Below are positions 1,215 through 22,637 of a DNA stretch of 32,151 nucleotides, piece by piece. Position 1 is the stretch's first letter. Each line of letters starts with the position of its first letter. The translations under genes and the position numbers were made by a program. The notes under the pieces are model-generated. The model was not told the origin of the DNA. It searched no databases and worked only from the letters and a program-made list of their open reading frames with translations. The DNA comes from Ruminococcus difficilis (GTDB lineage Bacteria > Bacillota_A > Clostridia > Oscillospirales > Acutalibacteraceae): NCBI RefSeq assembly GCF_016680995.1, contig NZ_JAEQMG010000013.1, positions 1-32,151 on the forward strand, read 5' to 3'.

Positions 1215-1229
1215 ATGGAGGTTATTACG

Positions 1230-4200
1230 ATGAAGAAAGTAATCCACAAGAGCTTTTTCAAAAGAGGAACGGCTATTCTGCTGGCTCTGGTGTGCCTGAT
1301 TTCAGCAATCTGCCTTGTTCCGATCAACGCGGCTTCAAGAGAAGTCACCATCACCTTTGACTATGCCTACGATACAGGCGGCAATATCATCGGCTTTGTG
1401 CAGTACACGGAACACGATGGCTATGTTGTCGGCACGGCTGGCGAAGAACTGTGTACCATTCAGGCAGACGGCGACGATGCCTACTGTATCGAGCCCGGTC
1501 ATTCGCTTTACTCAGGCAATACACTGACAACCGATGCTTCTGCGGCTTGGAACGCACTGTCAAAGGCTCAGAAGAAGGCGGTCAACCTCGCCCTTCTTTT
1601 CGGAAAGTCCGGCAACGGCGCGAATTTGGGCGGAACGGAAGGTCAGAAATGGATCGCAACTCAGCTTGTAGTTTGGGAATTCTGCACTGGCTGCCGCGAC
1701 GCTTCAACCTTTAAGCTGAAGAACTCCAAATTTATCGACGGCATCACGGCGGGCGACAACAACCCCGGCGTTAAGTCAAATTACAACAAGATTATCGCTA
1801 AACTCAACGACTACAATGTGATTCCGAGCTTTGCCTATGAAACTCAGGCAAATGCAAAGAGCAACGTCAAGGAGCTGAAGTACAGCGACGGCAAGTACAC
1901 CCTCACTCTGACAGACAGCAACGGTATGTTATCCGACTACGCTTTCAAAAAGACCGGCGATGTATCTGTTTCGATTTCAGGCAATAAGATCACTCTGACT
2001 TCATCAAAGGCGATTGACAGCCCTGTTGTTTTCGGCGCAGAGAAGAAAATGCCGAAGGTTACGGGTACGCTTATTGCTTGCGGCGCGTCCTCTAAGCAGG
2101 ATGTTGTCACGGGCGTACAGTCCGATACGGAAACCAAGAGCGCGTATTTCGCCGTCAAAACATCTTCGGGCAGCTTGAAGCTCATTAAGACTTCTGATGA
2201 CGGTAAGGTCAGCGGTATCAGCTTCAATATCACGGGACCGAACAATTACAGCAAAACAGCCAAGACCAACGCGAACGGTGAATTTCAGCTCAATGACCTC
2301 GTTCCGGGAACGTACACGGTAACAGAGGTCACCGAGGATAGATATGAAACGCAGAAAGCACAGAAAGTAACCGTAGAAAGCGGCAAGGTTGCCAGCGTAA
2401 AATTCAGCAATGTTTTGAAGCGCGGCGATTTACAGGTTGTGAAGTCCTCTGAGGACAATTTCAACGAAGGCGTAAAATTCCATCTTTACGGCACTTCTCT
2501 TTCGGGGGCAAAAGTAGATGAATATGCTGTTACTGATAATACTGGTACTGCTAATTTCAAAAATATCTTGGTGAGCGGCGATACACCCTATACGCTCGAA
2601 GAAGTTGACACAGCTATCCGATACGTTGTTCCGAAGTCACAGACCGCACCCGTCGTTTGGGATAAGGATACTAAACGTGAATTTACCAATACCCTCAAAA
2701 AGTTTATCGTTGAGGTTGCAAAGGTCGATTCCGAAACAAAGCAGCCGCAGGGCGACGCTTCGCTTGCAGGAGCAAAGTACGGTATCTATGACGGCGACAA
2801 GCTGATTGACACCTACACCACCGATAAGGACGGCAAATTCACCACTAAAGAATATGTCTGCGGCGATAATTGGACTATCAAGGAGATTGAGCCTTCCGAG
2901 GGCTATTTGCTTGATGAAACTGTCTATCCTGTCGGCGCAGAAGCGAAGAAGTACACCATTGAGCATAACAAATGCGTTCTCAGCGTTAATGAGGACGTTA
3001 TCAAGGGCGATATTGAAATTGTCAAGCACACCGATCAGGGACAGACCAAGATTGAAACACCCGAAGAAGGAGCCACGTTTCAGCTCTTTCTCAAAAGCGC
3101 AGGGAGTTTTGACAACGCACACGAAAGCGTCCGTGACACCCTTGTCTGTGACGAAAAAGGCTACGCAAAATCAAAGAAGTTGCCTTACGGCACCTACACT
3201 GTCCACCAGACCTACGGCTGGGAAGGCAGACACTATGTTGACGACTTCGATGTATTCGTCTGCGACAACTCTAAGCCGTACAGCTTCATCATTAACAATG
3301 ATATTTTTGAATCCTATCTCAAGGTGGTTAAGGTGGATGCTGAAACAGGAAAAACCATCCCCTACAAAGGAGCAGGATTCCAGATTTATTCACCCGATAA
3401 TACTCTGATCACTATGTCCGTTCCGTATCCCTCGAATCTGACAATCGACACATTTTATACCAACAGCGAGGGCTATCTGATTACGCCCGAAATGCTTGTG
3501 TACGATAAGGGTTATAAACTCGTTGAGGTACAGGCTCCCTACGGCTATGTACTCGACAGCACACCCGTCACCTTTGATATTACCGAGGACAACGCTACCG
3601 AGGAAAATGCGCTCACTATCGTAAAGGTAAACAAAGCGAACACACCGCAAAAGGGTAAGATTACTGTCACCAAAGAGGGCGAGAGCTTTGTAGGCGTGAA
3701 TGTTATCGGTGAGGAAACTCCCGTTTTTCAGCCCGTGTTCGAAATCACCAAGCAGAAAGGCGCAGTTTACTCCATCACCGCCGCCGAGGATATTGTTACT
3801 CCCGACGGCACCGTCAGAGTAAAGAAAGGCACGGTTGTAGATACCGTTACCACAGACGGCAAGGGTACGGCAACAAGCAAAGCGCTCTATCTCGGTAAAT
3901 ATACCGTCAAGGAGTACAAGGCTCCTGCCGGAATGGTCATCAGCGACGAGATCCACACGGTTGAGCTTGCCTATGCAGGGCAGGAAATCTCCGTAACCGA
4001 TAGCGCTACTTCGTTTTATAACGAAAGGCAGAAAGCCAACATTACACTCGCAAAGGTAATGGAGAGAAACGAAGCCTTTGAAATCGGCGACAACAGCGAA
4101 ATCCTCAATGTCACCTTCGGCTTATTTGCCGAGAGCGATATTACCGCCGCGAACGGCGACACCATCCCCGCTGACGGTCTGATTGAGATCGTTTCCGTTG

Positions 4201-5408
4201 ATGAAAACGGTAACGCTGCCTTTACAGCCGATATTCCGTTCGGCAAATATTATGTCAAGGAGCTTGCTACTGACGAGCATTATATCCTTAACGATGAACG
4301 CCACGGCTTTGAGTTTACCTACGGCGGTCAGACCGTCAAGACAGTTGAAATCAAGGCAAACGGCGATGAGCCGTTCACTAACGAGTTGATTTACGGCTCC
4401 GTATCCGGCAAGAAGGTTGATGAAAACGGCGAAGCACTCGGCGGCGCGGTTATCGGACTATTCAAGACCGATGATGTAGAATTCGCAAAGGAAAACGCAA
4501 CCTTGACAACAGAATCAGCCGATGACGGCAGCTTCAGCTTTGGCGAGAACAATATCCCGTTCGGCACTTGGTATATCCGTGAGATTGCCCAGCCCACAGG
4601 CTTTGTACTCAACGATACCGTGTACCCCGTCACCATCGGCGCAGACGGCGATATGGTCGAAATCGAGATTGTCAACGAGTATATTCGCGGCAACGTCAAG
4701 ACAACTAAGGTTGATGCCGACTATCCCGAAAACAAGCTGACAGGCGCAGTATTTGAAATCTATTCAGATACCAATGAGGATGAAAAGCTCGACAAGGATG
4801 ATACGCTGGTCGGCGAACTCAAAGAATCCGATACAGGTATTTATGAGATGAACGACATCGTTTACGGTCACTATCTTGTAAAGGAAAAGACCGCGCCTGA
4901 CGGCTTCATTCTTGACGAGAACACCTATCCCGTATTCATTGAAACAGACGGTACTACCTATGAAGTTGAAAATGAAGCAGAAAAAGGATTTTTGAATGAA
5001 GCGATGAAAGGCTCGCTCAAAATCATCAAGACTTCCTCCGATGATAAGGTGGAAGGTATTTCATTCCGCATCACAAGTGATAACGGCTTTGACCAGACCG
5101 TAAAGACCGATAAAAACGGCGAGATTACGATTGAAGGCTTACGCATCGGCAAATATCTTGTATCTGAGGTAAACAATGAAGCCTCTGCCGGTTATCTGCT
5201 CCCCGAGGACGCGGTTGTTGAAATCGAATACGGCAAGACCGCGACAGTCAAGATGCACAACGAGAAAATTGACGTTCCGCAGACAGGCGACTTCCGCACT
5301 TCCAACAGCTTTTGGATTGTACTCGGCGGCGTCGCGGCGGCAGGCATCGCCGTTTGTGTTGTGCTTCTTTTGAGAAAGAAAAAGAGAGTCAGCAAGGAGG
5401 CTGAATAA
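1230..5408 (+). CDS. Thioester-domain, multi-Cna-B surface adhesin with sortase signal (SpaA-like)
   Basis: This is a 1392-residue cell-wall-anchored adhesin. The chosen start at 1230 sits 8 bases after GGAGG; an in-frame ATG at 1215 is part of that site and has no site of its own. Residues 1-35 are a signal peptide (KRGTAILLALVCLISAICLV core). A thioester (TQXA-type) domain follows, with YCIEPG at Cys86 and ATQLVVWE at Gln145, the pair expected to form the internal Cys-Gln thioester that binds host surfaces covalently. From about residue 300 to 1345 there are ten prealbumin-like Cna-B modules, each opening with a K-x-x-K/KxD strand; modules 1 and 10 are closely similar (GSLKLIKTS versus GSLKIIKTS). 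VPQTG at 1349-1353, a hydrophobic segment (about 1360-1382) and an RKKKR tail form the sorting signal. No sortase is in the window. A role in mating-pair contact or host attachment is inferred. Confidence 0.9.
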   Translation: MKKVIHKSFFKRGTAILLALVCLISAICLVPINAASREVTITFDYAYDTGGNIIGFVQYTEHDGYVVGTAGEELCTIQADGDDAYCIEPGHSLYSGNTLTTDASAAWNALSKAQKKAVNLALLFGKSGNGANLGGTEGQKWIATQLVVWEFCTGCRDASTFKLKNSKFIDGITAGDNNPGVKSNYNKIIAKLNDYNVIPSFAYETQANAKSNVKELKYSDGKYTLTLTDSNGMLSDYAFKKTGDVSVSISGNKITLTSSKAIDSPVVFGAEKKMPKVTGTLIACGASSKQDVVTGVQSDTETKSAYFAVKTSSGSLKLIKTSDDGKVSGISFNITGPNNYSKTAKTNANGEFQLNDLVPGTYTVTEVTEDRYETQKAQKVTVESGKVASVKFSNVLKRGDLQVVKSSEDNFNEGVKFHLYGTSLSGAKVDEYAVTDNTGTANFKNILVSGDTPYTLEEVDTAIRYVVPKSQTAPVVWDKDTKREFTNTLKKFIVEVAKVDSETKQPQGDASLAGAKYGIYDGDKLIDTYTTDKDGKFTTKEYVCGDNWTIKEIEPSEGYLLDETVYPVGAEAKKYTIEHNKCVLSVNEDVIKGDIEIVKHTDQGQTKIETPEEGATFQLFLKSAGSFDNAHESVRDTLVCDEKGYAKSKKLPYGTYTVHQTYGWEGRHYVDDFDVFVCDNSKPYSFIINNDIFESYLKVVKVDAETGKTIPYKGAGFQIYSPDNTLITMSVPYPSNLTIDTFYTNSEGYLITPEMLVYDKGYKLVEVQAPYGYVLDSTPVTFDITEDNATEENALTIVKVNKANTPQKGKITVTKEGESFVGVNVIGEETPVFQPVFEITKQKGAVYSITAAEDIVTPDGTVRVKKGTVVDTVTTDGKGTATSKALYLGKYTVKEYKAPAGMVISDEIHTVELAYAGQEISVTDSATSFYNERQKANITLAKVMERNEAFEIGDNSEILNVTFGLFAESDITAANGDTIPADGLIEIVSVDENGNAAFTADIPFGKYYVKELATDEHYILNDERHGFEFTYGGQTVKTVEIKANGDEPFTNELIYGSVSGKKVDENGEALGGAVIGLFKTDDVEFAKENATLTTESADDGSFSFGENNIPFGTWYIREIAQPTGFVLNDTVYPVTIGADGDMVEIEIVNEYIRGNVKTTKVDADYPENKLTGAVFEIYSDTNEDEKLDKDDTLVGELKESDTGIYEMNDIVYGHYLVKEKTAPDGFILDENTYPVFIETDGTTYEVENEAEKGFLNEAMKGSLKIIKTSSDDKVEGISFRITSDNGFDQTVKTDKNGEITIEGLRIGKYLVSEVNNEASAGYLLPEDAVVEIEYGKTATVKMHNEKIDVPQTGDFRTSNSFWIVLGGVAAAGIAVCVVLLLRKKKRVSKEAE

Positions 5409-7607: not shown

Positions 7608-10600
7608 ATGGCAAAAAGAAAATTTGAAATTATATCAGAAATGTTTGATAGAGTTTCAACCGAAGTGACTTCCTCCCCCGATAGTTGGAGATCATTTCTT
7701 AATTCTGCCTGCCGTAACTTCAAACTCCGTTATGATGAACAAATCTTAGTTTACGCCCAAAAGCCCGAAGCGACTGCCGTTCTACCCATTGAACGGTGGA
7801 ACAGGACTTTCGGCAGATGGGTAAACCGAGGTGCAAAGGGAATCGCCGTCTTTGAAATGATAGGCGGAGATTCTCAACGATTAGTCCATTATTTCGATAT
7901 TTCCGATACACACGCAAGCGAGAATTCAAGACCTGTCCCTATATGGAATATGCGCTCCGAGTATGAGAACGAGGTCATTGATACGCTTGAAAATACCTTT
8001 GGCTACTTGGACAGCAAGGACAGTATCGAGCAGGCGATTATCAGCGCCGCAGACAACGCCGTCGAGGACAACACGCCCGACTATATCAGCGACCTAATAA
8101 GAACCGTTGATGACAGTTTCCTTGAAGGTTTAGGAGAAATAGCCGTTGATACAATGTACCGTCAGCTTGTTAAAAACAGCGTAGCCTATATGATGATGAC
8201 AAGACTCGGTATCGACGCCGACCGGTATTTTGATGATGACGATTTCCGTGATGTTATCAATTTCAATACCAAAGCAACAGCCAACGCCATCGGTTTTGCG
8301 ACGAGCGATATTGCCGAAATGGGACTTACCGAAATAGCAAGAACCGTAAATGCCCTTGCTCGGCAAAATCGCATAATTGCAGAAAATCGGAATACGGAAT
8401 ATACTAATGACACACCAAACGAAAGGAGTTTTGACAATGGCAGAACTGACTTACACGATGCAGGGCGATTATCTTCTGCCCGACGTGACACTCCCCGAAC
8501 AGCCGAGAGTAACGCTGGGACACTACGCGCAGATGAGGAAGAATTATCTGCTGAATCATCACAAGCTGATCTACTTCAACTATCTGACCAGCGGAACGCT
8601 GACAGCGCATCTGGCGGACGTTCAGGAGCAGGCGATAACGCTGGAGGAGAGCATCGTCAAGAAGATGGCTCAGAAAGAAGGAGTGACCGAGAAGCTGAAA
8701 GCGGAAGATCCGATGAAGTGGACGCGCCTGATGAACAATCTCAGACACTCGGCGCAGGAGATCGTCAAGGAACAGGTGATATTCGTATAAGTGAACAGGA
8801 GCAGGCTCAGTCAGAGGACGAGCCTGCTTTGTCTGTTATTAACGATGACCGATATGTGCGCGGCGATACCAATTTCAATTTGTTTGATGAAAGCATATTG
8901 AGAGATTTACCATTCTACGGTGTAGATGAGCGCATCAATGAGATATTTGCAACAACGCCCCACCTTCGTGCGTCCTTAGAGGAAATACGCAATTATATTG
9001 AAGCTGTTACCGATGAAGCAAAGCGAGAAGAATATATCCGCAGTGTTTTTAACGATGATTTTACTGAGGTTATTCTTGCTGACGGAGAACGCGCCGGATA
9101 TAAGACCTACGAAAACGGTTTATATATCTGGAAAGGCAGATACCCTGACCGCGAGGGCGACAACTTCCTTCATTGGAAAGATGTTGTCGGACACTTTAAC
9201 GCTATGCGAATGCTTGGTATGCTCCAAAGCACCGTTAAACCTTTGCCGTCGCAGGACGGACAATTACAACTTATCGCTGAATCGGCAGAGCGCAACGCGC
9301 CTGCTTTTTCTTTTGCACAGGAAATTATCGACAGCGTGTTAACACGAGGTAGTGGTGTTTCCGAGGGGAAAATGAGAATATATGAGCAGTTTCAGAAATC
9401 ATTATCCCAAACAGAAAACATTTCTTTTCTAAAAAATGAATACGGCTGGGGCGGTTCATCTAACGCTGTTAATTATACAGGCATCGGAGAAATGCACGAC
9501 GGTAAAGGCATCACGCTGAGTATTGGTTATAAGGAGGGTGCGCCGACACAACTTCTCAAATGGAACTATGTCGAAAAGCGCATCCGTGAACTGATACGGC
9601 TTGACCGTTACCTCAATCCAAAAGAAAAGGAATACTATCCCACTTGGCTTGACAGACAGGAGCAACTCAGAGCCGAACGTGCGGCTGAAAAGGCAGTCCG
9701 TGAAGCACTTTATACTCCACCGAGCCGTAAACGCGAGCTTGTTCCTACTGAGTATGAGTACCGCTATTCTCTCGGCGCGACGGTCTATATCGGCGCAAGT
9801 GAATATGAGATTGTTTCCTTTGATGAAAACCGTGTAATGCTCTTTGACCGCAGCTTTCCGTTAATCAACACGGAAATGACAAGAACCGAGTTTGACGCGA
9901 AGGTCAGAGAAAACCCGATGAACGATCACCTTCGTGTCGCAATACAACCCGAAAAAGAAGTAGACAGCACAGAACGCGATTACAGCAAATATACGCCTGT
10001 TATGCAGAAGTATTTCAAGCTGAGGGACGAAAATCCCGATTCAATCATTCTATTCCAAATCGGCGCTTTCTACGAAGCTATGGGCGATGATAGCCATACT
10101 GTTTCTCAGGCACTCGGCTTGAATATCACTACCCGTATGATAGCGGATGACGAGGGCATTGAGCTTTGTGGTTTTCCGTCGAGCCGACTTGAAACCAATA
10201 TGAATATGCTCCTTGACCGAGGACACAGGATTGGTATTTCAGCGATTGAAGAAAACGGCAGCCGCAAGTTTGTTACGGTACTGCCTAATCGTGATCGTGA
10301 GCCTGTTCAATCTGAGCCTGTCGGCAGGATTGAATACCTTAATGCAGACGGTACGGTTGAAAACAGTATCGAGTACACCAACGCGACAATGCTTGAGCGT
10401 GACATTAAAGCTGAAAGCGCTGATAATGTCAGTATGGCGGTGTATCTGTATAAGGACAGCGACGGAAATATGATGCCGCACGACTTTATAGACAGCCTTC
10501 CGCATCCCTTACAACGCTTTGAGATAGTCGATAAGCCTGAGCCGCAATCGGAGTACGATATTCTGATGAACAAAGCGCAGGAGCTTATAGCCTACTATAT

Positions 10601-13600
10601 GGATGCCGAATTTGGCGAGAACGAGGAATATAAGCTGCCTGATGATTTGTCCGAAATTAATCTTGCTTATACGACCACAGAGGACGAACAGCACGAAATA
10701 ACAGCCGACCTCAATCTGGTCGATTTTCGTATCCAGACGAAAGTTGACGGGCAGGTTGTCCGCACAGAGCAGTATTCCTCTTTGCAGGATATTGTTGAGA
10801 ACGGCTTGGATGGTATGCTCTTTGATGACCTTGTGTATGTTTCAGACGAGGAGCTTGCACCTTTCTATGCCGACCACGACGAGCTTGATGATGTTGATCC
10901 TGCCGAGATTCGTGCGCGACTTGCCGAATCCGGCATCGTAAACGGTGAGTTAGTCGATCCTGAAAAACTTGACAGCGATCCGTTTATTCAACAGGTAATG
11001 GCTGATGTTGAATCTATTACCGGAGCGACCGGTTTTATTGACCATTACTATGTTGTCGATGATCTGAGGGCTGCCCCGCTTAATGTAACAGAGTATAAAG
11101 ACCGTGACGAAGCGTTGTCGGCGTACTTTGACTTGCCCACCGACAAATTAAAAGCCTTCGGATTGATGAATACCAATAAGCTGCCGGGCAGTTTGGACTT
11201 TATTCAATGTATCGACGGAAAGGATAAATTCATTGAGGATTATGCAAGAGCAGATGTTCCTTCTTGGAGAAATCCCGAAATTGATGAGCTTGTATCATAT
11301 CTGAAACAACAGCTTGACGAGCGCACGACCATTCAACAAGCAGATGATGGTTCCTTGATTGATCAGGTATATGTAGATGCGAAGGACGCGGCGCGTGAGC
11401 AGGAACAATCCGAGGATAAACCGCAGCTCCGCACTATAACCTTTGATTTGACCGCGACAGAACAGGACGGCGCAAATCAGGATTTACTCGGAAAGCAGAT
11501 TAGACTTGATGACCGTGATTTCAAAGTCATCAAAGTCAACACCTACGGCGACGTCAGTTTGGAGGATCTCACCTTTAAGAGTGCAACAGGATACCCGATT
11601 GTCCGTATCGAAAAGGTTGAATTTGTCCGCAGAACATTAGAAGAACAGCAGGCAAAAGAACCGATTACTCCTGCTTGGGAGCAGAAGCCGAGAGCAAAGA
11701 CACAGACCTTTGACCTTCATCCCGATATTCCTATGGCTGACCGCCATACCTTTGACCTCAAAGCGTTCGAGTTAGAGGAAGTCGGTAAAAAGGCGCGTTT
11801 CCGCAGAAATGTTGACGCTATCCGCGTATTGAAGGAATGTGAGTTTGACAACCGCTTTGCAACGCCCGAAGAACAAAAAGTCCTTGCTCAGTATGTCGGT
11901 TGGGGCGGAATACCCGAAGCCTTTGATGAGAACAATGCTGCTTGGACAGATGAATTCTTTGAGTTGAGCGGTTTACTCTCTCCCGAAGAATATCAGTCAG
12001 CAAGAGAAAGTACGCTGACCGCGTTCTATACGCCGCCTGTTGTAATCTCAGCTATCTATAAGACAATGGAGCAGATGGGCTTCAAAGAAGGCAACATCTT
12101 GGAGCCTTCGTGTGGTATCGGCAACTTTATCGGTATGCTGCCCAACTCAATGGAAAACAGCCGCGTTTACGGTGTTGAGATTGATAAAATCTCCGCAGGC
12201 ATAGCACAGCAGCTTTACCAGCGCACATCAATAGCGGCACAACCCTTTGAACAAGCGGATATTCCCGACAGCTTCTTTGACGCGGTTGTCGGTAACGTTC
12301 CTTTTGGTGATTTTAGCGTCGCTGACAAACGCTATGATAAACACCATTTTCTGATTCACGATTACTTTTTCGCAAAGTCGCTCGACAAGCTCCGTCCGGG
12401 CGGCGTGATGGCTCTTGTTACCTCAAAGGGTACGATGGATAAAGAAAGTCCTGCCGTCAGAAAGTATATCGCCCAGCGCGCGGAGCTTCTCGGCGCAATC
12501 CGTTTGCCGAACAACACCTTTAAGGGAAACGCCGGAACAGAGGTCGTATCCGATATTCTGATTTTGCAAAAGCGTGACCGTATCATCGACATTGAACCGG
12601 ATTGGGTACACTTGAATACCGATGAAAACGGTATCAAGATGAACAGCTACTTTGTCGATCACCCCGATATGATTCTCGGTGAAATGAAGATGGTGTCGGG
12701 ACGGTTCGGCGAAGAAGCGACCTGTGAGCCATACGAAAACGCCGACCTTGAAAGTTTGCTGAACGACGCGATTTCCAATATTCACGGCGAGATTACAGAC
12801 TATCAGCTTGACGAGGATTTAGAGGAAGAAGATAATTCCATTCCTGCCGATCCGACTGTCAGGAACTTCTCCTACGCTCTTTATGACGGCAAAATCTATT
12901 TCAGAGAGAACAGCCGAATGGTTCCCGTTGAAGCATCCGCGACGGCGGAAAACCGTATCAAGGGCTTGATTGAGATTAGAGATTCCGTCCGCAGACTCTT
13001 GGAGTTGCAGACGGAGGATTATCCCGACAGCGACATCAAAGCTGAACAGCAACACCTTAACAAGCTATATGATGATTATACGGCGAAGTACGGTCTGATC
13101 AACAGTCGCGGCAACAGTATGGCATTCTCTCAGGACAGCTCCTATTCTCTGTTGTCCGCGTTAGAGGTTATCGACGATGAAGGTAATCTTGAGCGTAAAG
13201 CGGATATGTTCTTTAAGCGTACCGTTAAACCGCACACTCCCGTTACTTCGGTCGATACCGCGTCGGAAGCTCTTGCCGTATCAATGGCGGAGAAAGCCCA
13301 CGTTGATATGGACTATATGGAGCAGCTCACAGGCAAATCCGAAAAAGAGATTTTCGACGAGCTGAAAGGCGTTATTTTCCTTAATCCTCATTATGAATAC
13401 GGAAACGATCCGTCAGGAAAGTATCTGATGGCAGACGAATACCTCTCCGGAAATGTCCGTGAAAAGCTGCGGGTAGCGAGAAAATCCGCAGAGCTGTATC
13501 CCGAAGATTATACTGTCAATGTGCAGGCTCTCGAAAAGGTACAGCCAAAGGATTTGACTGCCAGCGAGATTTCCGTCAGGCTCGGCGCGACTTGGCTGCC

Positions 13601-14942
13601 TGTTGATGTTGTCGAGAAGTTTATGCACGAATTCTTTGATACTCCCTACTATTCCCGTCACAAAATGAAGGTGCATTTTTCCGAGTACACGGGCGAATGG
13701 AATATCGAGAACAAGACCGGCGACAAGAGCAATGTCAAGGTAAACAGCACCTATGGCACAAAGCGAATCAACGGCTACAAAATCTTAGAGGAAACGCTTA
13801 ACCTCAAAGATGTTCGTATTTTTGATTACGTTGAGGATGCAGACGGCAAGCGTAAGGCTGTCCTCAACAAAAAGGAAACCGCTATTGCTCAATCCAAGCA
13901 GGAGCTTATTAAGCAAGGTTTTCAAGATTGGGTATGGGCTGATCCGAAACGCCGCGAGCGTCTTTGTAAAATCTACAATGAAAGATTCAACAGCACGCGC
14001 CCCCGTGAGTATGACGGCAGTCACATCACTTTCAGCGGAATGAACCCTGAGATTGAGTTGAGAACCCATCAAAAAAACGCTGTTGCACACATCCTTTACG
14101 GCGGCAACACACTACTCGCACACGCGGTTGGAGCCGGCAAGACGTTCGAGATGGTCGCGGCGGCGATGGAGAGCAAAAGGCTTGGTTTATGTACCAAGTC
14201 TTTATTTGTTGTGCCGAATCATTTGACCGAGCAATGGGCGGCTGAATTTTTGCAGTTATACCCTGCGGCAAACGTCCTTGTTGCTACGAAAAAGGATTTT
14301 GAAACCAAAAACCGTAAGCGCTTTTGCGGTCGTATTGCCACAGGTGATTACGACGCTATCATTATCGGACACTCACAGTTTGAAAAAATCCCGATGAGCG
14401 TTGAACGTCAGAAGCAGATTTTGGAGCAGCAGCTTCAGGAAATCACCGACGGTATCATCGAAATGAAGGCGAATCGCGGCGAGCGTTTTTCAATCAAGCA
14501 GCTTGAAAAATCCAAAAAAGGAATCCAGGCAAAGCTGAAAAAGCTCAACGACCAGAGCCGCAAGGATGACGTAGTAACCTTTGAAGAACTCGGTGTTGAC
14601 CGTCTGTTTATCGACGAAAGTCATTATTACAAGAACCTTTTCCTGTTCACAAAAATGCGCAATGTCGGCGGCATCGCTCAGACAGAAGCGCAGAAGTCCA
14701 GCGACCTTTTTATGAAGTGTCGCTATCTCGACGAGCTGACGGGCGGCAGAGGTGCGATATTCGCCACAGGTACGCCTATCTCCAATTCTATGGTAGAGCT
14801 TTACACCATACAGCGCTATTTGCAGTATGAAACGCTCCAGCAAAATGGCTTACAGCACTTCGATTCTTGGGCTTCAACCTTTGGTGAAACGATTACGGCA
14901 GTTGAGTTGACACCCGAGGGCTATACTTTAATAGGACGATAA
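7608..14942 (+). CDS. Giant ArdC-like / MutS-I / adenine methylase / SNF2 helicase, 5' part (gene split by transposon)
   Basis: The native protein runs to residue 2436 (up to 14915); only about nine foreign codons follow before a stop inside the transposon. Residues 1-120 resemble an ArdC/LtrC-type N-terminus (FRSFLNSACRNFKLRYDEQ, GRWVNRGAKGIAVF-like). Residues 277-394 are a low-complexity linker overprinted by tnpV. About 790-895 resembles MutS domain I (PVMQKYFKLRDENPDSI, LFQIGAFYEAMGDDS). About 1440-1640 is an N6-adenine methylase with LEPSCGIGNF (1498-1507) and NVPF (1563-1566). Helicase lobe 1 carries AVGAGKT (2173-2179) and DESH (2336-2339). Lobe 2 lies at 22638-24248, beyond the transposon. 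Such proteins are common in clostridial ICEs and are thought to process or modify transferred DNA; the exact role is not established. With the lobes separated, helicase activity should be lost, while the methylase could survive. Confidence 0.9.
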   Translation: MAKRKFEIISEMFDRVSTEVTSSPDSWRSFLNSACRNFKLRYDEQILVYAQKPEATAVLPIERWNRTFGRWVNRGAKGIAVFEMIGGDSQRLVHYFDISDTHASENSRPVPIWNMRSEYENEVIDTLENTFGYLDSKDSIEQAIISAADNAVEDNTPDYISDLIRTVDDSFLEGLGEIAVDTMYRQLVKNSVAYMMMTRLGIDADRYFDDDDFRDVINFNTKATANAIGFATSDIAEMGLTEIARTVNALARQNRIIAENRNTEYTNDTPNERSFDNGRTDLHDAGRLSSARRDTPRTAESNAGTLRADEEELSAESSQADLLQLSDQRNADSASGGRSGAGDNAGGEHRQEDGSERRSDREAESGRSDEVDAPDEQSQTLGAGDRQGTGDIRISEQEQAQSEDEPALSVINDDRYVRGDTNFNLFDESILRDLPFYGVDERINEIFATTPHLRASLEEIRNYIEAVTDEAKREEYIRSVFNDDFTEVILADGERAGYKTYENGLYIWKGRYPDREGDNFLHWKDVVGHFNAMRMLGMLQSTVKPLPSQDGQLQLIAESAERNAPAFSFAQEIIDSVLTRGSGVSEGKMRIYEQFQKSLSQTENISFLKNEYGWGGSSNAVNYTGIGEMHDGKGITLSIGYKEGAPTQLLKWNYVEKRIRELIRLDRYLNPKEKEYYPTWLDRQEQLRAERAAEKAVREALYTPPSRKRELVPTEYEYRYSLGATVYIGASEYEIVSFDENRVMLFDRSFPLINTEMTRTEFDAKVRENPMNDHLRVAIQPEKEVDSTERDYSKYTPVMQKYFKLRDENPDSIILFQIGAFYEAMGDDSHTVSQALGLNITTRMIADDEGIELCGFPSSRLETNMNMLLDRGHRIGISAIEENGSRKFVTVLPNRDREPVQSEPVGRIEYLNADGTVENSIEYTNATMLERDIKAESADNVSMAVYLYKDSDGNMMPHDFIDSLPHPLQRFEIVDKPEPQSEYDILMNKAQELIAYYMDAEFGENEEYKLPDDLSEINLAYTTTEDEQHEITADLNLVDFRIQTKVDGQVVRTEQYSSLQDIVENGLDGMLFDDLVYVSDEELAPFYADHDELDDVDPAEIRARLAESGIVNGELVDPEKLDSDPFIQQVMADVESITGATGFIDHYYVVDDLRAAPLNVTEYKDRDEALSAYFDLPTDKLKAFGLMNTNKLPGSLDFIQCIDGKDKFIEDYARADVPSWRNPEIDELVSYLKQQLDERTTIQQADDGSLIDQVYVDAKDAAREQEQSEDKPQLRTITFDLTATEQDGANQDLLGKQIRLDDRDFKVIKVNTYGDVSLEDLTFKSATGYPIVRIEKVEFVRRTLEEQQAKEPITPAWEQKPRAKTQTFDLHPDIPMADRHTFDLKAFELEEVGKKARFRRNVDAIRVLKECEFDNRFATPEEQKVLAQYVGWGGIPEAFDENNAAWTDEFFELSGLLSPEEYQSARESTLTAFYTPPVVISAIYKTMEQMGFKEGNILEPSCGIGNFIGMLPNSMENSRVYGVEIDKISAGIAQQLYQRTSIAAQPFEQADIPDSFFDAVVGNVPFGDFSVADKRYDKHHFLIHDYFFAKSLDKLRPGGVMALVTSKGTMDKESPAVRKYIAQRAELLGAIRLPNNTFKGNAGTEVVSDILILQKRDRIIDIEPDWVHLNTDENGIKMNSYFVDHPDMILGEMKMVSGRFGEEATCEPYENADLESLLNDAISNIHGEITDYQLDEDLEEEDNSIPADPTVRNFSYALYDGKIYFRENSRMVPVEASATAENRIKGLIEIRDSVRRLLELQTEDYPDSDIKAEQQHLNKLYDDYTAKYGLINSRGNSMAFSQDSSYSLLSALEVIDDEGNLERKADMFFKRTVKPHTPVTSVDTASEALAVSMAEKAHVDMDYMEQLTGKSEKEIFDELKGVIFLNPHYEYGNDPSGKYLMADEYLSGNVREKLRVARKSAELYPEDYTVNVQALEKVQPKDLTASEISVRLGATWLPVDVVEKFMHEFFDTPYYSRHKMKVHFSEYTGEWNIENKTGDKSNVKVNSTYGTKRINGYKILEETLNLKDVRIFDYVEDADGKRKAVLNKKETAIAQSKQELIKQGFQDWVWADPKRRERLCKIYNERFNSTRPREYDGSHITFSGMNPEIELRTHQKNAVAHILYGGNTLLAHAVGAGKTFEMVAAAMESKRLGLCTKSLFVVPNHLTEQWAAEFLQLYPAANVLVATKKDFETKNRKRFCGRIATGDYDAIIIGHSQFEKIPMSVERQKQILEQQLQEITDGIIEMKANRGERFSIKQLEKSKKGIQAKLKKLNDQSRKDDVVTFEELGVDRLFIDESHYYKNLFLFTKMRNVGGIAQTEAQKSSDLFMKCRYLDELTGGRGAIFATGTPISNSMVELYTIQRYLQYETLQQNGLQHFDSWASTFGETITAVELTPEGYTLIGR
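8437..8790 (+). CDS. tnpV: TnpV-family protein overprinted inside the helicase gene
   Basis: This 117-residue ORF lies entirely within the helicase gene in a different forward frame. It has its own ribosome binding site, AAAGGAG at 8422-8428, 8 bases before the ATG, and ends at a TAA. It is clearly homologous to the tnpV at 17161: shared blocks include YFN-LTSG-L--HL, KxMAxKxGVTExLK and LMNNxRxxAxEIV. TnpV is a small protein of unknown function first defined in Tn4451. In this region the helicase frame encodes a Gly/Ser/Arg/Asp-rich disordered linker, so conserved coding information appears to sit in the TnpV frame. An upstream in-frame start at 8377 has no ribosome binding site. I consider this a true embedded gene, not a shadow ORF. 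Confidence 0.85.
   Translation: MAELTYTMQGDYLLPDVTLPEQPRVTLGHYAQMRKNYLLNHHKLIYFNYLTSGTLTAHLADVQEQAITLEESIVKKMAQKEGVTEKLKAEDPMKWTRLMNNLRHSAQEIVKEQVIFV
14916..14917. other. Left transposon junction (GA crossover, attL)
   Basis: The helicase frame reads V-E-L-T-P-E up to this GA and then departs into transposon sequence (G-Y-T-L-I-G-R-stop). The right junction has the same GA after cccc. Large serine recombinases of the TnpX/TndX group are known to exchange at a 2-base GA core, leaving one copy at each end. The core inside either adjacent trinucleotide is ambiguous by one base at most. Confidence 0.85.
14922..14927 (+). promoter_or_regulatory. Left-end -10 box (TATACT), half of the circle-joint tnpX promoter
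   Basis: TATACT lies 4 bases inside the left GA. In the integrated state the hexamer 17 bases upstream is CAGTTG, a poor -35, and a TTGACA at 14907-14912 is only 9 bases away. In the excised circle the right end supplies TTGACA with exactly 17 bases of spacing. Known Tn4451 biology is a tnpX promoter formed at the circular joint. Confidence 0.8.
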
Positions 14943-15019
14943 ATAATGCGTTTCTAAATTGAAAAAGAGGTTATCAAAAGCGGCTTGGAGGTTGCGAAAG
15001 AATTTATATATTTTCTTGA

Positions 15020-17532
<2,513 letters not shown>

Positions 17533-17543
17533 TGAAATACCTG

Positions 17544-17588
17544 CCGAAAGAGAACTGCTGTCGATTGATGGCAGTTTTCCTTTTTCGG
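17544..17588 (+). terminator. Terminator of tnpX-tnpV
   Basis: AACTGCTGTC (17553-17562) pairs with GATGGCAGTT (17567-17576) around GATT, with two G-T wobbles, followed by TTCCTTTTT. An outer CCGAAA/TTTCGG pairing (17544-17549 with 17583-17588) extends it. It isolates tnpX-tnpV from the ABC-F gene, which has its own promoter. Confidence 0.75.
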
Positions 17589-17673
17589 TAAGTGTTCAAG
17601 AAGTTATTAAGTTGCGACAGTAATGGAAGAAATCACAATTATACAAGAAAGCAATAAAAAGCCATATTACATC

Positions 17674-17702
17674 TTGTATTTTTTCTTTTCTTGTGGTATA
17701 AT
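17674..17702 (+). promoter_or_regulatory. Sigma-A promoter of the ABC-F leader
   Basis: TTGTAT (17674-17679) and TATAAT (17697-17702) are separated by exactly 17 bases, and a second overlapping TATAAT begins at 17702. Transcription should start near 17709, giving a leader of about 240 bases before the ABC-F start. This promoter lies after the tnpX-tnpV terminator and serves only the cargo gene. Confidence 0.8.
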
Positions 17703-17733
17703 ATAATGGATTTTTTTAGAAAGAGGTGGAAAG

Positions 17734-17757
17734 ATGATTAACTTTTCTTGCAAATAA
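17734..17757 (+). CDS. Leader peptide MINFSCK of the ABC-F attenuator
   Basis: This seven-residue ORF is preceded by AGAGGTGG (17720-17727) at suitable spacing. Codons 3 to 7 lie within pairing arm 1 of the leader (17740-17753), so a ribosome stalled here would mask that arm. This is the usual layout of leaders controlling vga, lsa, msr and erm-type genes. Translation is inferred from position and site, not proven. Confidence 0.6.
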   Translation: MINFSCK

Positions 17758-17759
17758 TA

Positions 17760-17822
17760 ATGAAATATGTGGTTATACTGCTTTGCTGCGGTATTATCAC
17801 ACTCGTTGCAAGAAAGTTATAA
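17760..17822 (+). CDS. Possible second leader ORF (20 aa)
   Basis: This ORF begins two bases after the first leader stop and encodes a hydrophobic peptide (MKYVVILLCCGII at the start) ending ARKL. It could be translated by re-initiation and it runs through pairing arm 2, so its translation would affect the same RNA switch. It has no ribosome binding site of its own apart from the stop of the first leader. It may be coincidental. Confidence 0.35.
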   Translation: MKYVVILLCCGIITLVARKL

Positions 17823-17892
17823 GTCTATTCATTTTATATAAGCTAATCTCTATTCTATTATAGAGAAATTATTGGCATTGTATTGATATGAG

Positions 17893-17931
17893 GAGCTGTA
17901 AGAGTTGACTTTCTTGCAGCTCTAATTTTGT
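17893..17931 (+). terminator. Conditional terminator upstream of the ABC-F start
   Basis: An 11-bp stem with one G-T pair (17893-17903 with 17912-17922), an 8-base loop and a T-rich tail (TAATTTTGT) end just before the ABC-F ribosome binding site AAGGAG at 17935-17940. It is the terminator half of the attenuator described at 17740-17931. Confidence 0.75.
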
Positions 17932-17950
17932 ATTAAGGAGAAGATGTACA

Positions 17951-19429
17951 ATGTCAATGATTAAAGTGGAAAATCTTACATTTTCCTATCCATCAAGTTA
18001 TGATAATATTTTTGAAAATGTAAGCTTTCAGATAGACAGTGATTGGAAACTTGGCTTTATAGGCAGAAATGGTAGAGGTAAGACAACATTTTTGAACTTG
18101 TTACTTGGCAAGTATAAATACAGTGGTAAAATTTTTTCTTCTGTACAGTTTGATTACTTTCCCTATCCAGTTTGCGACAAAGGCAGAATGACAACGGATG
18201 TTTTAGCAGAAATATGCCCCATTGCAGAAGAATGGGAAAAGATGAGAGAATTGAATTATCTTGAGGTAGAAGCAGATGTGCTTTATAGACCATTTAGCAC
18301 CCTTTCAAATGGTGAGCAAACAAAGGTATTACTTGCGGCATTGTTTTTAAATGAGGGACATTTTCTGCTGATTGATGAGCCTACAAATCACTTGGATATG
18401 CAGGCAAGAGAAATTGTTTCTGAATATCTCAGAAAAAAACAAGGATTCATATTAGTATCACACGACCGCAGGTTTGTGGATAATTGCGTAGACCATATTT
18501 TATCTATCAATAGAACAAATATTGAGGTTCAAAAAGGTAATTTTAGTTCTTGGTGGGAAAATAAGCAAAGACAAGATTCCTTAGAGATTGCTACAAACGA
18601 AAAATTGAAGAAAGAAGTTAATCGATTGTCCGAAGCAGCGAAACGAAATGCAAACTGGTCGGATAAAGTGGAAAAAAGTAAGAAAGGAACAACAAATTCC
18701 GGTTCTAAATTGGACAAAGGTTTTGTCGGTCATAAAGCGGCTAAAATGATGAAGCGGTCAAAAGTCATAGAGGCAAGGCAACAAGAAACAATCGAGAAAA
18801 AATCAGCACTGTTGAAGAATATTGAAACGATAGCGAGTTTGAAAATTTGTCCTTTAATATATCATTCCGATATTCTACTGCGTGCATCTAATCTTTCTAT
18901 TTGCTATGGACAAAATATTGTCTGTGATAATGTGTCTTTTGAAATTAGGCAAGGTGACCGTATTGCTCTTGATGGAAAGAACGGAAGTGGAAAAAGCAGT
19001 CTGCTAAAGTTGATTGTTGGCGAAACTATTGTACATTCAGGAGAATTATCCGTAGGAACACAACTTATTATTTCATATGTTCCGCAGGATACCTCTCATT
19101 TGAGAGGACTACTATCTGATTATGCCAGAAACTGTGAAATAGACGAAAGTTTGTTTAAATCAATTCTTAGAAAGCTTGGCTTTGAAAGAGTACAATTTGA
19201 AAAGGACATAGCAGATTTTTCAGGTGGGCAAAAGAAAAAAGTGCTGATAGCACGGAGCCTTTGCGAACAGGCACACCTCTATGTATGGGATGAGCCTTTG
19301 AACTTTATTGATGTGTATTCACGAATACAGATTGAACAGTTAATCGAAGAAAATGCATTGACAATGATTTTTGTAGAACACGATAAAAACTTTAGAGAGA
19401 GGATTGCAACGAAAACATTTCAATTATAA
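17951..19429 (+). CDS. Antibiotic-resistance-type ABC-F ribosomal protection protein (Lsa/Vga-like)
   Basis: This 492-residue protein has two ABC ATPase domains and no membrane segment, the ABC-F layout. Domain 1: Walker A GRNGRGKT (38-45), signature LSNGEQ (118-123), Walker B with DEPTNHLD (about 142-149). The interdomain linker runs from about 195 to 300 and is rich in Lys and helix formers. Domain 2: GKNGSGKS (342-349), signature SGGQ (424-427), and DEPLNFID (about 447-454), the second-domain signature typical of Lsa/Vga/Msr resistance factors. Members bind the ribosomal E site and displace drugs such as lincosamides, streptogramin A and pleuromutilins. The exact drug range cannot be read here. 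It occupies the catP slot of Tn4451, is markedly AT-rich, and has its own attenuated promoter, all pointing to a drug-response cargo gene. A housekeeping ABC-F is less likely. Confidence 0.9.
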   Translation: MSMIKVENLTFSYPSSYDNIFENVSFQIDSDWKLGFIGRNGRGKTTFLNLLLGKYKYSGKIFSSVQFDYFPYPVCDKGRMTTDVLAEICPIAEEWEKMRELNYLEVEADVLYRPFSTLSNGEQTKVLLAALFLNEGHFLLIDEPTNHLDMQAREIVSEYLRKKQGFILVSHDRRFVDNCVDHILSINRTNIEVQKGNFSSWWENKQRQDSLEIATNEKLKKEVNRLSEAAKRNANWSDKVEKSKKGTTNSGSKLDKGFVGHKAAKMMKRSKVIEARQQETIEKKSALLKNIETIASLKICPLIYHSDILLRASNLSICYGQNIVCDNVSFEIRQGDRIALDGKNGSGKSSLLKLIVGETIVHSGELSVGTQLIISYVPQDTSHLRGLLSDYARNCEIDESLFKSILRKLGFERVQFEKDIADFSGGQKKKVLIARSLCEQAHLYVWDEPLNFIDVYSRIQIEQLIEENALTMIFVEHDKNFRERIATKTFQL

Positions 19430-19460
19430 AATAACTAAATATCTTTTGAATAATACAAAA

Positions 19461-19486
19461 ACATCGTAGAAATACGGTGTTTTTTG
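19461..19486 (+). terminator. Terminator of the ABC-F gene
   Basis: ACATCGTA (19461-19468) and TACGGTGT (19473-19480) form an 8-bp stem with one G-T pair around a GAAA tetraloop, followed by TTTTTG. AAAAA before the stem mirrors the T-run, so it may work from both sides. Confidence 0.85.
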
Positions 19487-19513
19487 TTACCTAAAACTCA
19501 CAATTTCATACAT

Positions 19514-19641
19514 AACCACAGATTAGTACAAATACCTTGTGTGATTTTTTGAAAGGCTTAGAGAGGGGATTTTCCTCGATTTTTGCCCCGAAAAGTTACA
19601 GAAACAAGGCTGATGTATCTCTATCTGTGGTTTTTTTATTT
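19514..19641 (+). promoter_or_regulatory. Long-range inverted repeat with T-run upstream of the small Cys-rich ORF
   Basis: AACCACAGAT (19514-19523) is the exact reverse complement of ATCTGTGGTT (19623-19632), about 100 bases apart, and the right copy runs into TTTTTTTATTT. This could be a long-range terminator or leader structure before the tnpY operon. No promoter was confidently identified between the ABC-F terminator and 19665. Confidence 0.45.
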
Positions 19642-19664
19642 CTCAGAGAAAAAGGAGGATTGGT

Positions 19665-19850
19665 ATGCCGAGAATGAGCAAGAAACGGAAACAGGAATGG
19701 GCATTGTTTCTGAATGACCGAAACCGCATTACCTACAACGAACTTTGCAGAAAATGCAGTAATCTTTGCAAGCAGAGTTTCCGTTGTATTGTAGTGTATT
19801 GCCCGAATTATTTGTCGAAAAGGAGGACAACGAAAAATGAGACAGATTGA
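19665..19850 (+). CDS. Small cysteine-rich basic protein
   Basis: This 61-residue protein has a strong AAAGGAGG site directly upstream and overlaps the next gene by 14 bases. It is basic at the N-terminus (MPRMSKKRKQEW) and carries five cysteines at 28, 31, 35, 41 and 46 (CRKCSNLCKQSFRCIVVYC region), suggesting a small zinc-binding fold. No named family is recognised. Its tight coupling to the RepA-like ATPase suggests a partner in transposon maintenance or mobilisation. Because it is short and unusual, the function is open, but the site and overlap make a real gene likely. Confidence 0.65.
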   Translation: MPRMSKKRKQEWALFLNDRNRITYNELCRKCSNLCKQSFRCIVVYCPNYLSKRRTTKNETD

Positions 19851-20859
19851 AAATGAAATGAATGTCAGCGTACCGCTTGAAGTTGTCAAAGCAAGTGAGA
19901 TTGAGCCGAAAGAAGTAAAATGGCTGTGGTATCCGTATATTCCGTTTGGCAAGGTTACGCTGTTGCAGGGCGATCCCGGCGATGGTAAAAGCAAGTTAAT
20001 GCTTTCCATCTCCGCCCTGCTCACGAAAGGCGAGCCACTTCCGTTTACCGAGACGGAAGAAAACGAGCCTATGACTGTCATTTATCAGACAACGGAAGAT
20101 GATGCAGACGATACGGTAGTGCCCCGATTTAATTCGGCAGGCGGTAACGGAGAAAAACTTATCTTCATCAAGGAAGATGAAAAATCTTTATCCTTTGGGG
20201 ACAACCGTATTCGTGAAGCAATAGAGATGTACCACGCAAGACTTTTAATTCTTGACCCGATGAGTTCCTACATCGGAGAAAACTGTTCTATGAACAACGC
20301 CAACGAAACACGAGCAGAGTTTAATCATCTGATAGCGGTTGCAAAAGAAACAGGCTGTGCGATTGTGATTATCTCCCATATGAATAAGATGAAAGACATC
20401 AATCCGCTTTACCGCACAAACGGTTCAATTGATATTGCGGGTGCTGCAAGAAGTATTCTTGCAATCACACGCACACCTAACAAGGAAGCCCCTGCGGAGA
20501 GGTATTTGGTGCAGGTAAAATCCAACCTTGCCCCGACAGGCTCTGCCATTCTTTTTGCAGTATCGGAGAAAGGTGTGGATTTTATTTCTGAAATGGAAAT
20601 GACGGCAGAGGAAGCGTTTCAATCCCTTGCCCCTAAAATCGGCAGACCCAATGACAAGGAGATTAAGGCGAAAGCATTTCTTGTTGAAATGCTGAAAGGC
20701 GGTGAAATGCTTTCTTCGGATTGTGAGGAAAAACTTGAAGCTGCAGGGTTCAAGAAATCGACCATCAAAAAGGCAAAAAAGAACGCAGGGGTTATCTCAG
20801 AAAAGAAAGGCTTTCTGTGGTACTGGTCTTTGCCGATGGGCGATATACCGAGAGAATAA
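19837..20859 (+). CDS. tnpY: RepA-like AAA/RecA-fold ATPase (TnpY position)
   Basis: This 340-residue protein opens with a short N-terminal region and then a RecA-type core: Walker A GDPGDGKS (45-52), Walker B in LLILDPMSSYIG (near 132-143), and a later IVIISHMNKM segment that fits the sensor region of hexameric replicative helicases such as plasmid RepA. The C-terminal 90 residues look like a winged helix (AFLVEMLKGGEML...KKSTIKKAKKNAG). AAGGAGG precedes the ATG. In Tn4451 the gene before tnpZ is tnpY, so the name rests on synteny. A role in replicating or unwinding the mobilised single strand is inferred. A terminator follows at 20862. Confidence 0.8.
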   Translation: MRQIENEMNVSVPLEVVKASEIEPKEVKWLWYPYIPFGKVTLLQGDPGDGKSKLMLSISALLTKGEPLPFTETEENEPMTVIYQTTEDDADDTVVPRFNSAGGNGEKLIFIKEDEKSLSFGDNRIREAIEMYHARLLILDPMSSYIGENCSMNNANETRAEFNHLIAVAKETGCAIVIISHMNKMKDINPLYRTNGSIDIAGAARSILAITRTPNKEAPAERYLVQVKSNLAPTGSAILFAVSEKGVDFISEMEMTAEEAFQSLAPKIGRPNDKEIKAKAFLVEMLKGGEMLSSDCEEKLEAAGFKKSTIKKAKKNAGVISEKKGFLWYWSLPMGDIPRE

Positions 20860-20861
20860 AG

Positions 20862-20893
20862 ACAGGCTGTCTGCTGAATGGACAGTCTGTTTT
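20862..20893 (+). terminator. Terminator of tnpY
   Basis: ACAGGCTGTC (20862-20871) pairs with GACAGTCTGT (20881-20890), a 10-bp stem with one G-T pair and a 9-base loop, followed by TTTTAA. It lies just after the tnpY stop. Confidence 0.75.
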
Positions 20894-20917
20894 AATGATT
20901 GAGGTATCTAAGGAGGT

Positions 20918-21003
20918 CAAGGGGGAACTCCCTTGCCCACGACATCTTTGCAGACGAAGTCTGAAAGTGTCATAGTGGGTTACACACATTCAGAGAATGT
21001 TGT
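20918..21003. other. Probable oriT of the inner transposon (MobV/pMV158 type)
   Basis: Three stem-loops precede tnpZ: CAAGGG/CCCTTG (20918-20935); a strong one of 13 bp with two bulges and a GAA loop (20941-20971); and an ACACACATTC/GAATGTTGTGT one (about 20983-21004). Directly after the second stem is ATAGTGGGTTA (20972-20982), close to the pMV158 nick region ATAGTGTG/TTA, which also follows an inverted repeat. Position just upstream of the MobV relaxase gene fits known oriT placement. The nick would be expected between 20979 and 20980. Confidence 0.65.
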
Positions 21004-21039
21004 GTAATGGCTTCGCCCTGCCGAGAAAGGAGAACGAAA

Positions 21040-22305: not shown

Positions 22306-22388
22306 CCGCTTCGATTATACTCACGACTTAATGACTTGTTGATATGTTGAGGTGTATCGGAGGAATATTTTTCTTCGGCTGGTAATCG

Positions 22389-22421
22389 GGACACTTGGAA
22401 ACGGGTGTCCTTTATTTTTTT
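22389..22421 (+). terminator. Terminator between tnpZ and tnpW
   Basis: GGACAC (22389-22394) and GTGTCC (22405-22410) form a 6-bp stem with a 10-base loop, followed by TTTATTTTTTT. The tnpW ribosome binding site (AAAGGAG, about 22423-22429) begins right after the T-run, so tnpW expression may depend on partial read-through. Confidence 0.75.
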
Positions 22422-22438
22422 GAAAGGAGCAAAACGAT

Positions 22439-22624
22439 ATGGAGAATAGAAATTCAAGTTATTCGGTACGAATTGGAAATACAACCTTTATTGTGTGCGT
22501 AAAGCAATCGGAAACTGCCCAAAAACCGATTGAAAAGGTCTTTAAGGATATGTGCAGACACGAGATTGCAGGCGGTTTCTTTTCGGATAAATTTGATTTA
22601 GAAAAGTTACAGAAAACATCTTGA
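22439..22624 (+). CDS. tnpW: TnpW-like small transposon protein
   Basis: This 61-residue protein begins after AAAGGAG and ends 13 bases before the right crossover. Position at the extreme right end, after tnpZ, and its size match tnpW of Tn4451. The N-terminal beta-like part (YSVRIGNTTFIVCVKQ) and the helical C-terminus (AQKPIEKVFKDMC) are typical of the small proteins annotated as TnpW. No function is established. Its stop codon TGA (22622-22624) lies inside the TTGACA that serves as the -35 half of the circle-joint promoter, so coding end and promoter share bases. Confidence 0.8.
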   Translation: MENRNSSYSVRIGNTTFIVCVKQSETAQKPIEKVFKDMCRHEIAGGFFSDKFDLEKLQKTS

Positions 22625-22626
22625 CA
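22621..22626 (+). promoter_or_regulatory. Right-end -35 box (TTGACA), half of the circle-joint tnpX promoter
   Basis: TTGACA lies at 22621-22626 near the right end. On circularisation 13 bases (22627-22639, ending in GA) join four bases of the left end (14918-14921), giving a 17-base spacer to TATACT at 14922. The result is a consensus-like sigma-A promoter reading into tnpX. In the integrated form no -10 lies at proper distance downstream in the helicase sequence. Confidence 0.8.
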
Positions 22627-22637
22627 AACACTGCCCC

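What the first reader, a model, noticed from the sequence alone, without database searches (positions are those of the whole stretch)
8437..8790. A complete tnpV gene is overprinted in another frame inside the giant helicase gene
An ORF of 117 codons with a strong ribosome binding site (8422-8428) and clear homology to transposon TnpV lies wholly inside the helicase coding sequence. The helicase frame is open throughout but encodes a disordered Gly/Ser/Arg/Asp-rich linker. Two proteins thus use the same DNA, with the constraint apparently on TnpV. One scenario is that tnpV was captured in a frame compatible with read-through and then domesticated by the ICE.
Basis: partly seen in the sequence, partly recalled or inferred. 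Interest (0 to 1): 0.85.

Follow-up and report, generated by a model that had tools for sequence, protein, structure and literature searches.

The report
Small gene nested in helicase gene
A complete small gene (tnpV) lies in a shifted reading frame inside a giant helicase gene of a conjugative element, and the same double use of the DNA recurs in distant relatives among Gram-positive bacteria, which makes it an unusually old and widespread overlapping gene pair.

Summary
The 117-codon ORF at 8437-8790 is a full-length TnpV (PF14198, E 3.7e-40) in the +1 frame of an open 2,444-codon polyvalent helicase ORF. In 102 of 102 loci where a TnpV hit follows the helicase N-terminal domain (Clostridia, Bacilli, Tissierellia), the frame offset is the same and both frames are open. 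The wobble base before stop-risk codons is T in 0 of 2,844 nested sites, against 26% of 1,010 sites in free-standing tnpV genes. A GAAAGGAG ribosome-binding site precedes 70 of 102 nested genes, and the helicase frame there uses its least-used Arg codon, AGG. Selection acts mainly on TnpV; the helicase frame is kept open and hydrophilic, otherwise nearly free. TnpV and helicase distances correlate (r 0.87), so the pair was inherited together. Free-standing tnpV genes branch among nested ones in several places (one nested clade rejected, p 0.006). Whether tnpV was first captured or born there is open. TnpV's function is unknown; its translation is inferred, not observed.

The parts
7608..14942 (+). 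host ORF: polyvalent helicase (N-terminal domain related to ArdC-like proteins, acidic linker, MutS-I domain, methyltransferase-like region below Pfam cut-off, SNF2 region), 2,444 codons; its 3' part is displaced by an inserted element
   Evidence: remainder of the helicase matches at 22632-24236
7608..8393 (+). helicase N-terminal domain used to recognise relatives (residues 1-262)
8422..8428 (+). AAAGGAG ribosome-binding site of the nested tnpV, inside helicase codons GAA-AGG-AGT
   Evidence: AAAGGAG upstream of 74 of 102 nested starts, GAAAGGAG in 70 of 102; host Arg codon AGG in 85 of 127 Glu-Arg pairs near the start against 111 of 932 Arg codons in the N-domain
8437..8790 (+). nested tnpV, +1 frame of the helicase, 117 aa, mostly helical by prediction
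8437..8790 (+). the same DNA read in the helicase frame: acidic, hydrophilic linker

Best explanation
The 354 bases encode two proteins. SHOWN from sequence: tnpV is nested in the +1 frame of the helicase gene in a wide family; selection preserves the TnpV protein; the helicase frame is kept free of stops and hydrophilic and otherwise changes almost freely. SUPPORTED by trees and distances: the two genes have been inherited together since before the sampled helicases diverged, and free-standing tnpV genes arise from among the nested ones in several places. INFERRED: ribosomes start tnpV internally on the helicase mRNA at the conserved GAAAGGAG-ATG, so TnpV is made wherever the helicase mRNA is made. 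Other ribosomes read through in the helicase frame and produce an acidic flexible linker between the N-terminal domain and the rest of the helicase. INFERRED, weakest: TnpV is a small, near-neutral, mostly helical protein that works in the same process (processing or establishment of the transferred element), more likely as a protein partner than as a DNA binder.
For: 102 of 102 with the same offset and both frames open. All 23 strongest N-domain places in 398 genomes carry it (L001, 22 loci). Wobble T 0 of 2,844 nested against 25.9% of 1,010 free. Host stops 0 observed against 320 expected under synonymous shuffles in 101 nested genes. Third codon position slower in nested genes at matched identity (0.507 against 0.608 at 50-60% identity). 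Shuffle tests. Close-pair selection test. Helicase-TnpV distance correlation 0.872, largest of 2,000 permutations 0.312, 59 loci. Nested state on both sides of the place where ArdC-type proteins without TnpV attach. One nested clade rejected, p-AU 0.00585. Among 22 helicases the tnpV frame is open and similar in all 22, and no other same-strand ORF appears among the 45 rows listed.
Against: No translation or function data. Start choice favoured sites with a ribosome-binding site, so the ATG/SD counts are inflated. The most distant cases are weak: R. albus L097 (E 5e-5) and a Listeria plasmid L111 (E 3e-8) were seen only with a retrained model; L105, L130, L134 and L098 score E 9e-7 to 2.4e-5, the first three without the N-terminal part. 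In L101 the N-domain itself is split between two frames and was counted by its second piece. A relative with a 2,354-codon open frame (L135, G242) has neither the linker nor TnpV. TnpV trees rest on 116 columns, many forks are open and the bootstrap had not settled. The close-pair test is a simple site-count, not a published overlap method. The linker's function is untested.
Confidence: 0.86

Rival explanations
1. Ancient capture or operon fusion: a free tnpV downstream of an ArdC-like gene was read through in its +1 frame and fused to the helicase before the family diversified, so the linker is the newer reading; later copies escaped again. (This and the next rival concern the origin only and are compatible with the best explanation.)
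For: The TnpV frame is predicted to be well folded (mean pLDDT 89.7) while the host frame is low-complexity and its composition is largely dictated by TnpV codons. Several free tnpV genes looked at closely follow or overlap the 3' end of another ORF (window 17161 inside the recombinase end; L006, L156, L159). Relative L135 has neither linker nor TnpV.
Against: No free-standing lineage is clearly outside the nested ones in the tree; the root is not inferred.
Confidence: 0.5
2. Birth by overprinting: tnpV arose de novo in the +1 frame of an existing linker and free-standing tnpV genes are escapees.
For: Nested lineages are the deep and diverse ones under midpoint drawing; free ones lie among them in several places. 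No solved structure matches well by sequence (best hits are designed proteins, E 0.017) or by Foldseek (best E 3.2). Free copy L159 has 0 host-frame stops where 5.6 are expected.
Against: No linker-bearing helicase shown to lack TnpV was found, so the pre-birth state is unseen. A folded inner frame with a low-complexity outer frame is the reverse of what is usual for new overprinted genes (recalled). L159 is 1 of 54 tested and not corrected for multiple tests; total free-gene stops are only mildly low, 385 against 437.
Confidence: 0.33
3. Only the helicase frame matters; the TnpV ORF is a by-product of codon use in the linker.
For: Long open frames can arise in G+C-rich low-complexity coding sequence (general knowledge).
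Against: TnpV conservation greatly exceeds host-synonymous shuffles (0.443 against 0.201); substitutions spare the TnpV protein, not the linker; the same protein exists as a free gene whose helicase-type frame is closed.
Confidence: 0.02
4. Only tnpV is translated; the helicase is really two genes and its frame through tnpV is open by chance.
For: Record L095 annotates TnpV and starts the SNF2 gene downstream; L096 annotates TnpV and no helicase.
Against: 0 host stops in 102 loci; wobble T absent at 2,844 stop-risk sites.
Confidence: 0.02
5. TnpV is an excisionase-like factor that steers the element's recombinase, as postulated for Tn4451.
For: Published postulate from homology with lambda Xis (passage in PMC3158075); a free tnpV follows the serine recombinase in the window.
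Against: Predicted mostly helical with median net charge -1; no Xis or winged-helix protein among Foldseek's 16 listed PDB hits, all weak, though such matches can be missed; many copies sit in a helicase, not beside a recombinase.
Confidence: 0.25

Closest known systems
TnpV family, PF14198 (Tn4451, Tn6104-6106)
   Same: Same protein family over its full length.
   Different: Described as a separate gene of transposons (PMC3158075 passages); here it is nested in a helicase gene. Of 20 papers that hold the word (several use it for something else), I read passages of four; none of those passages mentions nesting.
Rz/Rz1 spanin genes of phage lambda
   Same: Inner gene embedded in the +1 frame of the outer gene; embedded, overlapped and separated forms exist; annotation often misses the inner gene (PMC6139136 passages).
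   Different: Two lysis proteins of phages that work together; here the partners are a giant conjugative-element helicase and TnpV.
comS inside srfAB of Bacillus subtilis
   Same: Small gene in another frame inside a very large gene of a Bacillota (PMC12915044 passages).
   Different: ComS is a competence protein of Bacillus; no mobile element, and no free-standing family known to me (recalled).
Polyvalent proteins of conjugative elements (PMC5512222)
   Same: The host ORF has the MutS-I and helicase domains of that class; about 80% of MutS-I polyvalent proteins also carry ArdC-N (passages).
   Different: A term search of that paper's text finds no 'TnpV' and no 'overlapping'.
SNF2 / COG4646 genes of Tn5252- and Tn1549-family ICEs, target of IMEs
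   Same: Same kind of gene by description, and the window's copy carries an inserted serine-recombinase element (PMC7168690 and PMC9815147 passages).
   Different: The passages seen describe a TnpV carried by the inserted elements, not one nested in the gene itself.

Membership tests
TnpV (PF14198) | Profile match above the curated cut-off over the full domain | tested here: met
   136.8 bits against a cut-off of 27, positions 1-111 of 111
TnpV (PF14198) | Located in a mobile element | tested here: met
   window holds ParB, relaxase, T4SS coupling protein and recombinase genes
Same-strand nested (overprinted) gene pair | Inner ORF wholly inside another coding frame, conserved in homologues beyond chance | tested here: met
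   102 of 102
Same-strand nested (overprinted) gene pair | Purifying selection on the inner frame after accounting for the outer | tested here: met
Same-strand nested (overprinted) gene pair | Selection on the outer frame | tested here: met
   stops excluded; amino-acid constraint is weak
Same-strand nested (overprinted) gene pair | Both proteins are made | not testable with these tools
   needs ribosome profiling or mass spectrometry
Polyvalent proteins | MutS-I plus helicase domains in one polypeptide of a conjugative element | tested here: met
   MutS_I 6.3e-18, SNF2 6.8e-9
Polyvalent proteins | N-terminal ArdC-N domain | tested here: inconclusive
   no Pfam ArdcN hit in the host ORF at E up to 0.1, but its N-domain is related to proteins annotated or matched as ArdC-like
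Xis / recombination directionality factors | Winged-helix or similar DNA-binding fold | tested here: inconclusive
   no such match among the Foldseek or VIA rows; absence from these lists excludes nothing

The most novel reading that the evidence does not exclude
TnpV was born by overprinting inside the helicase linker of an ancestral Gram-positive conjugative element, has been kept in that overlap ever since, and every free-standing tnpV, including those carried next to resistance genes and recombinases, is an escapee: an old de novo gene of bacteria whose birthplace is still occupied.
Probability: 0.3. Interest if true: 0.93.

Novelty: new variant of a known kind. Interest (0 to 1): 0.85.

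Why it matters
Long same-strand overlaps are rare and disputed in bacteria (recalled). This one recurs among Bacillota in highly diverged sequences, comes with an internal control (the same protein as a free gene), and so allows measurement of how one frame shapes the other. It also exposes an annotation fault: of nine annotated records seen, none lists both genes; two list TnpV without the overlapping helicase part and seven list the helicase or ArdC-like gene without TnpV. And it suggests a source for the tnpV genes that travel with integrative elements and resistance cargo.

Full report
WHAT WAS CHECKED. The ORF at 8437-8790 exists as described: ATG start, AAAGGAG at 8422-8428, 117 aa. It is a full-length TnpV (PF14198, E 3.7e-40). 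It lies in the +1 frame of the open 2,444-codon ORF 7608-14942, which carries MutS-I (E 6.3e-18) and SNF2 (E 6.8e-9) matches and a methyltransferase-like match below Pfam's cut-off. The third frame has 15 stops over the same stretch.

OCCURRENCE. A scan of one genome per species with the first 631 helicase residues gave 64 loci. By tblastn 60 of these 64 carry TnpV; one of the 60 (L074) only in part, at a locus end. The four without are not intact counter-examples: L085 stops at a contig end; in L088 both frames are interrupted soon after the tnpV start; in L092 and L093 the open frame begins downstream of the linker. In 398 genomes of the phylum the 23 strongest N-domain places (E at most 5.3e-57) all carry TnpV in the +1 frame (L001; L112-L133). 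Of the 31 weaker places 11 regions were fetched (L134-L144). One, L134, has TnpV; the other ten show no TnpV row even at domain E up to 1; seven of these ten have open frames of 173-476 codons, the others 750, 843-1,041 and 2,354. Named distant relatives have it in the +1 frame: Cohnella L096, Virgibacillus L108, Enterococcus L098 and L107, Anaerococcus L105, S. suis L110, and, with a retrained model only, R. albus L097 (E 5e-5) and a Listeria plasmid L111 (E 3e-8). Five of five fetched contigs labelled as phage from human faeces have it too (L100, L101, L102, L106, L109); in L101 the N-domain is split between two frames. L135 (G242), with a 2,354-codon open frame, has neither the Gly/Asp linker nor TnpV; by eye its methyltransferase region follows the N-domain closely.

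COUNT. Over the loci held there were 132 TnpV hits (E at most 1e-4). Of these, 102 lie downstream of a helicase N-domain; all 102 have offset 1, an open host frame through tnpV, and no stop in the TnpV hit. The other 30 have 2-17 host-frame stops except L094 (which begins inside the linker) and L029 (no N-domain seen, 0 stops). After further loci were added the numbers were 102 and 56, and L159 joined the free genes without a host-frame stop. This count is conditional on a TnpV hit; the unconditional counts are those of the paragraph above.

SELECTION. 76 nested and 28 free genes remained after near-copies (over 95% identity) and L094 and L029 were dropped. Before codons starting AA, AG or GA, where a T wobble base would create a host stop, nested genes have T at 0 of 2,844 sites; free genes have 25.9% of 1,010. 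Synonymous shuffles predict 320 host stops in 101 nested genes; 0 are seen. At equal protein identity the third codon position changes less in nested genes (0.507 against 0.608 at 50-60% identity). At 40-50% TnpV identity (759 of 2,850 pairs) TnpV identity is 0.443 against 0.201 in host-synonymous shuffles; host identity there is 0.277 against 0.248 in TnpV-synonymous shuffles (40 shuffles each). In 22 disjoint close pairs (of 71 close pairs) with 384 differences, 227 fall on TnpV third positions; the TnpV ratio NN/SN is 0.28 of expectation and the host ratio NN/NS is 0.96. Three differences there would singly create a host stop against 10.6 expected; none of the sequences holds one. So TnpV is strongly preserved, and the host frame must stay open and hydrophilic but otherwise drifts. 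Host linkers have median net charge -15, 88% hydrophilic or small residues, and 2 Cys in 7,963 residues (67 loci).

START SITE. GAAAGGAG stands at the same distance in 70 of 102 and AAAGGAG in 74 of 102; ATG in 101 of 102. The start-picking rule favoured such sites, so these counts are inflated. The codon test does not depend on it: in Glu-Arg pairs of the helicase near the TnpV start, Arg is AGG in 85 of 127, against 111 of 932 Arg codons in the N-domain, where AGG is the least used of the six.

HISTORY. N-domain and TnpV distances correlate at 0.872 over 59 loci (largest of 2,000 permutations 0.312). In the N-domain tree (75 rows) the ArdC-type proteins without TnpV attach between nested lineages, so the overlap appears to predate the sampled helicases; several long branches make this unsure. 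That tree's own label count (7 changes) is not meaningful as it stands: it labels the window's separate ArdC-like protein as nested, and several rows labelled as lacking TnpV are cut or interrupted (L085, L088, L144_N_118) or were later found to have it (L097, L111). In the TnpV tree (110 of 155 rows after thinning at 82% identity: 59 nested, 51 free; 116 columns; bootstrap not settled) the labels need 11 changes, at least 5 forced by starred branches; free genes L004 and L006 sit with nested L067 (100/97), L166 with nested L106 (97/84). With the rows of ten long-branch loci removed (99 rows) one nested clade is rejected, p-AU 0.00585. Re-entry of a free gene into the identical frame and place several times is implausible, so I read these as escapes; the tree is unrooted and cannot prove direction. 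Codon footprints are weak support: free genes have 385 host-frame stops against 437 expected, and only L159 (0 against 5.6) stands out clearly among 54.

CONTEXT IN THE WINDOW. The window holds ParB, a SpaA-repeat protein, the helicase, a DUF3991/Toprim protein, a relaxase, an ArdC-like protein and a coupling protein, which resembles Tn1549-type conjugative elements (recalled, not tested). The helicase match breaks at 14921 and resumes at 22632; between lie a serine recombinase, a second free tnpV, an ABC-type ATPase, an AAA protein and a Mob_Pre relaxase, much like the IMEs reported inside SNF2 genes (PMC9815147, PMC7168690, passages). The nested tnpV is intact in this interrupted helicase.

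ANNOTATION. In nine annotated records seen, none lists both genes: L095 and L096 list TnpV but not the overlapping helicase part; L097, L098, L105, L107, L108, L110 and L111 list the helicase or ArdC-like gene but not TnpV. The plasmid tables omit pseudogenes and are incomplete, so some originals may differ.

VERDICT. A real, old and widespread nested gene pair. Translation and function remain untested.

Noticed in passing
window 14922-22631: An element with serine recombinase, free tnpV, ABC-type ATPase, AAA protein and Mob_Pre relaxase interrupts the helicase gene; in L081 and L086 the helicase match breaks at the same residue (2458 of L041).
   Followed up: partly
window 17161-17532: A second, free-standing TnpV gene overlaps the 3' end of the serine recombinase gene (15116-17236) by 76 bases; its helicase-type frame has 9 stops.
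   Followed up: partly
L095, L096: The plasmid gene tables keep TnpV and lack the overlapping helicase part; L096 also carries an antisense hypothetical CDS over the N-domain.
   Followed up: yes
window 1215-5408: 1,397-codon surface protein with thioester domain and ten SpaA-type stretches.
   Followed up: no
window 29207-30103: Separate ArdC-like protein (ArdcN E 7.8e-5) whose N-terminal part is a distant relative of the helicase N-domain.
   Followed up: partly
L029 and L159: TnpV genes without a recognisable helicase upstream but with no stop in the helicase-type frame; possible recent escapees.
   Followed up: partly
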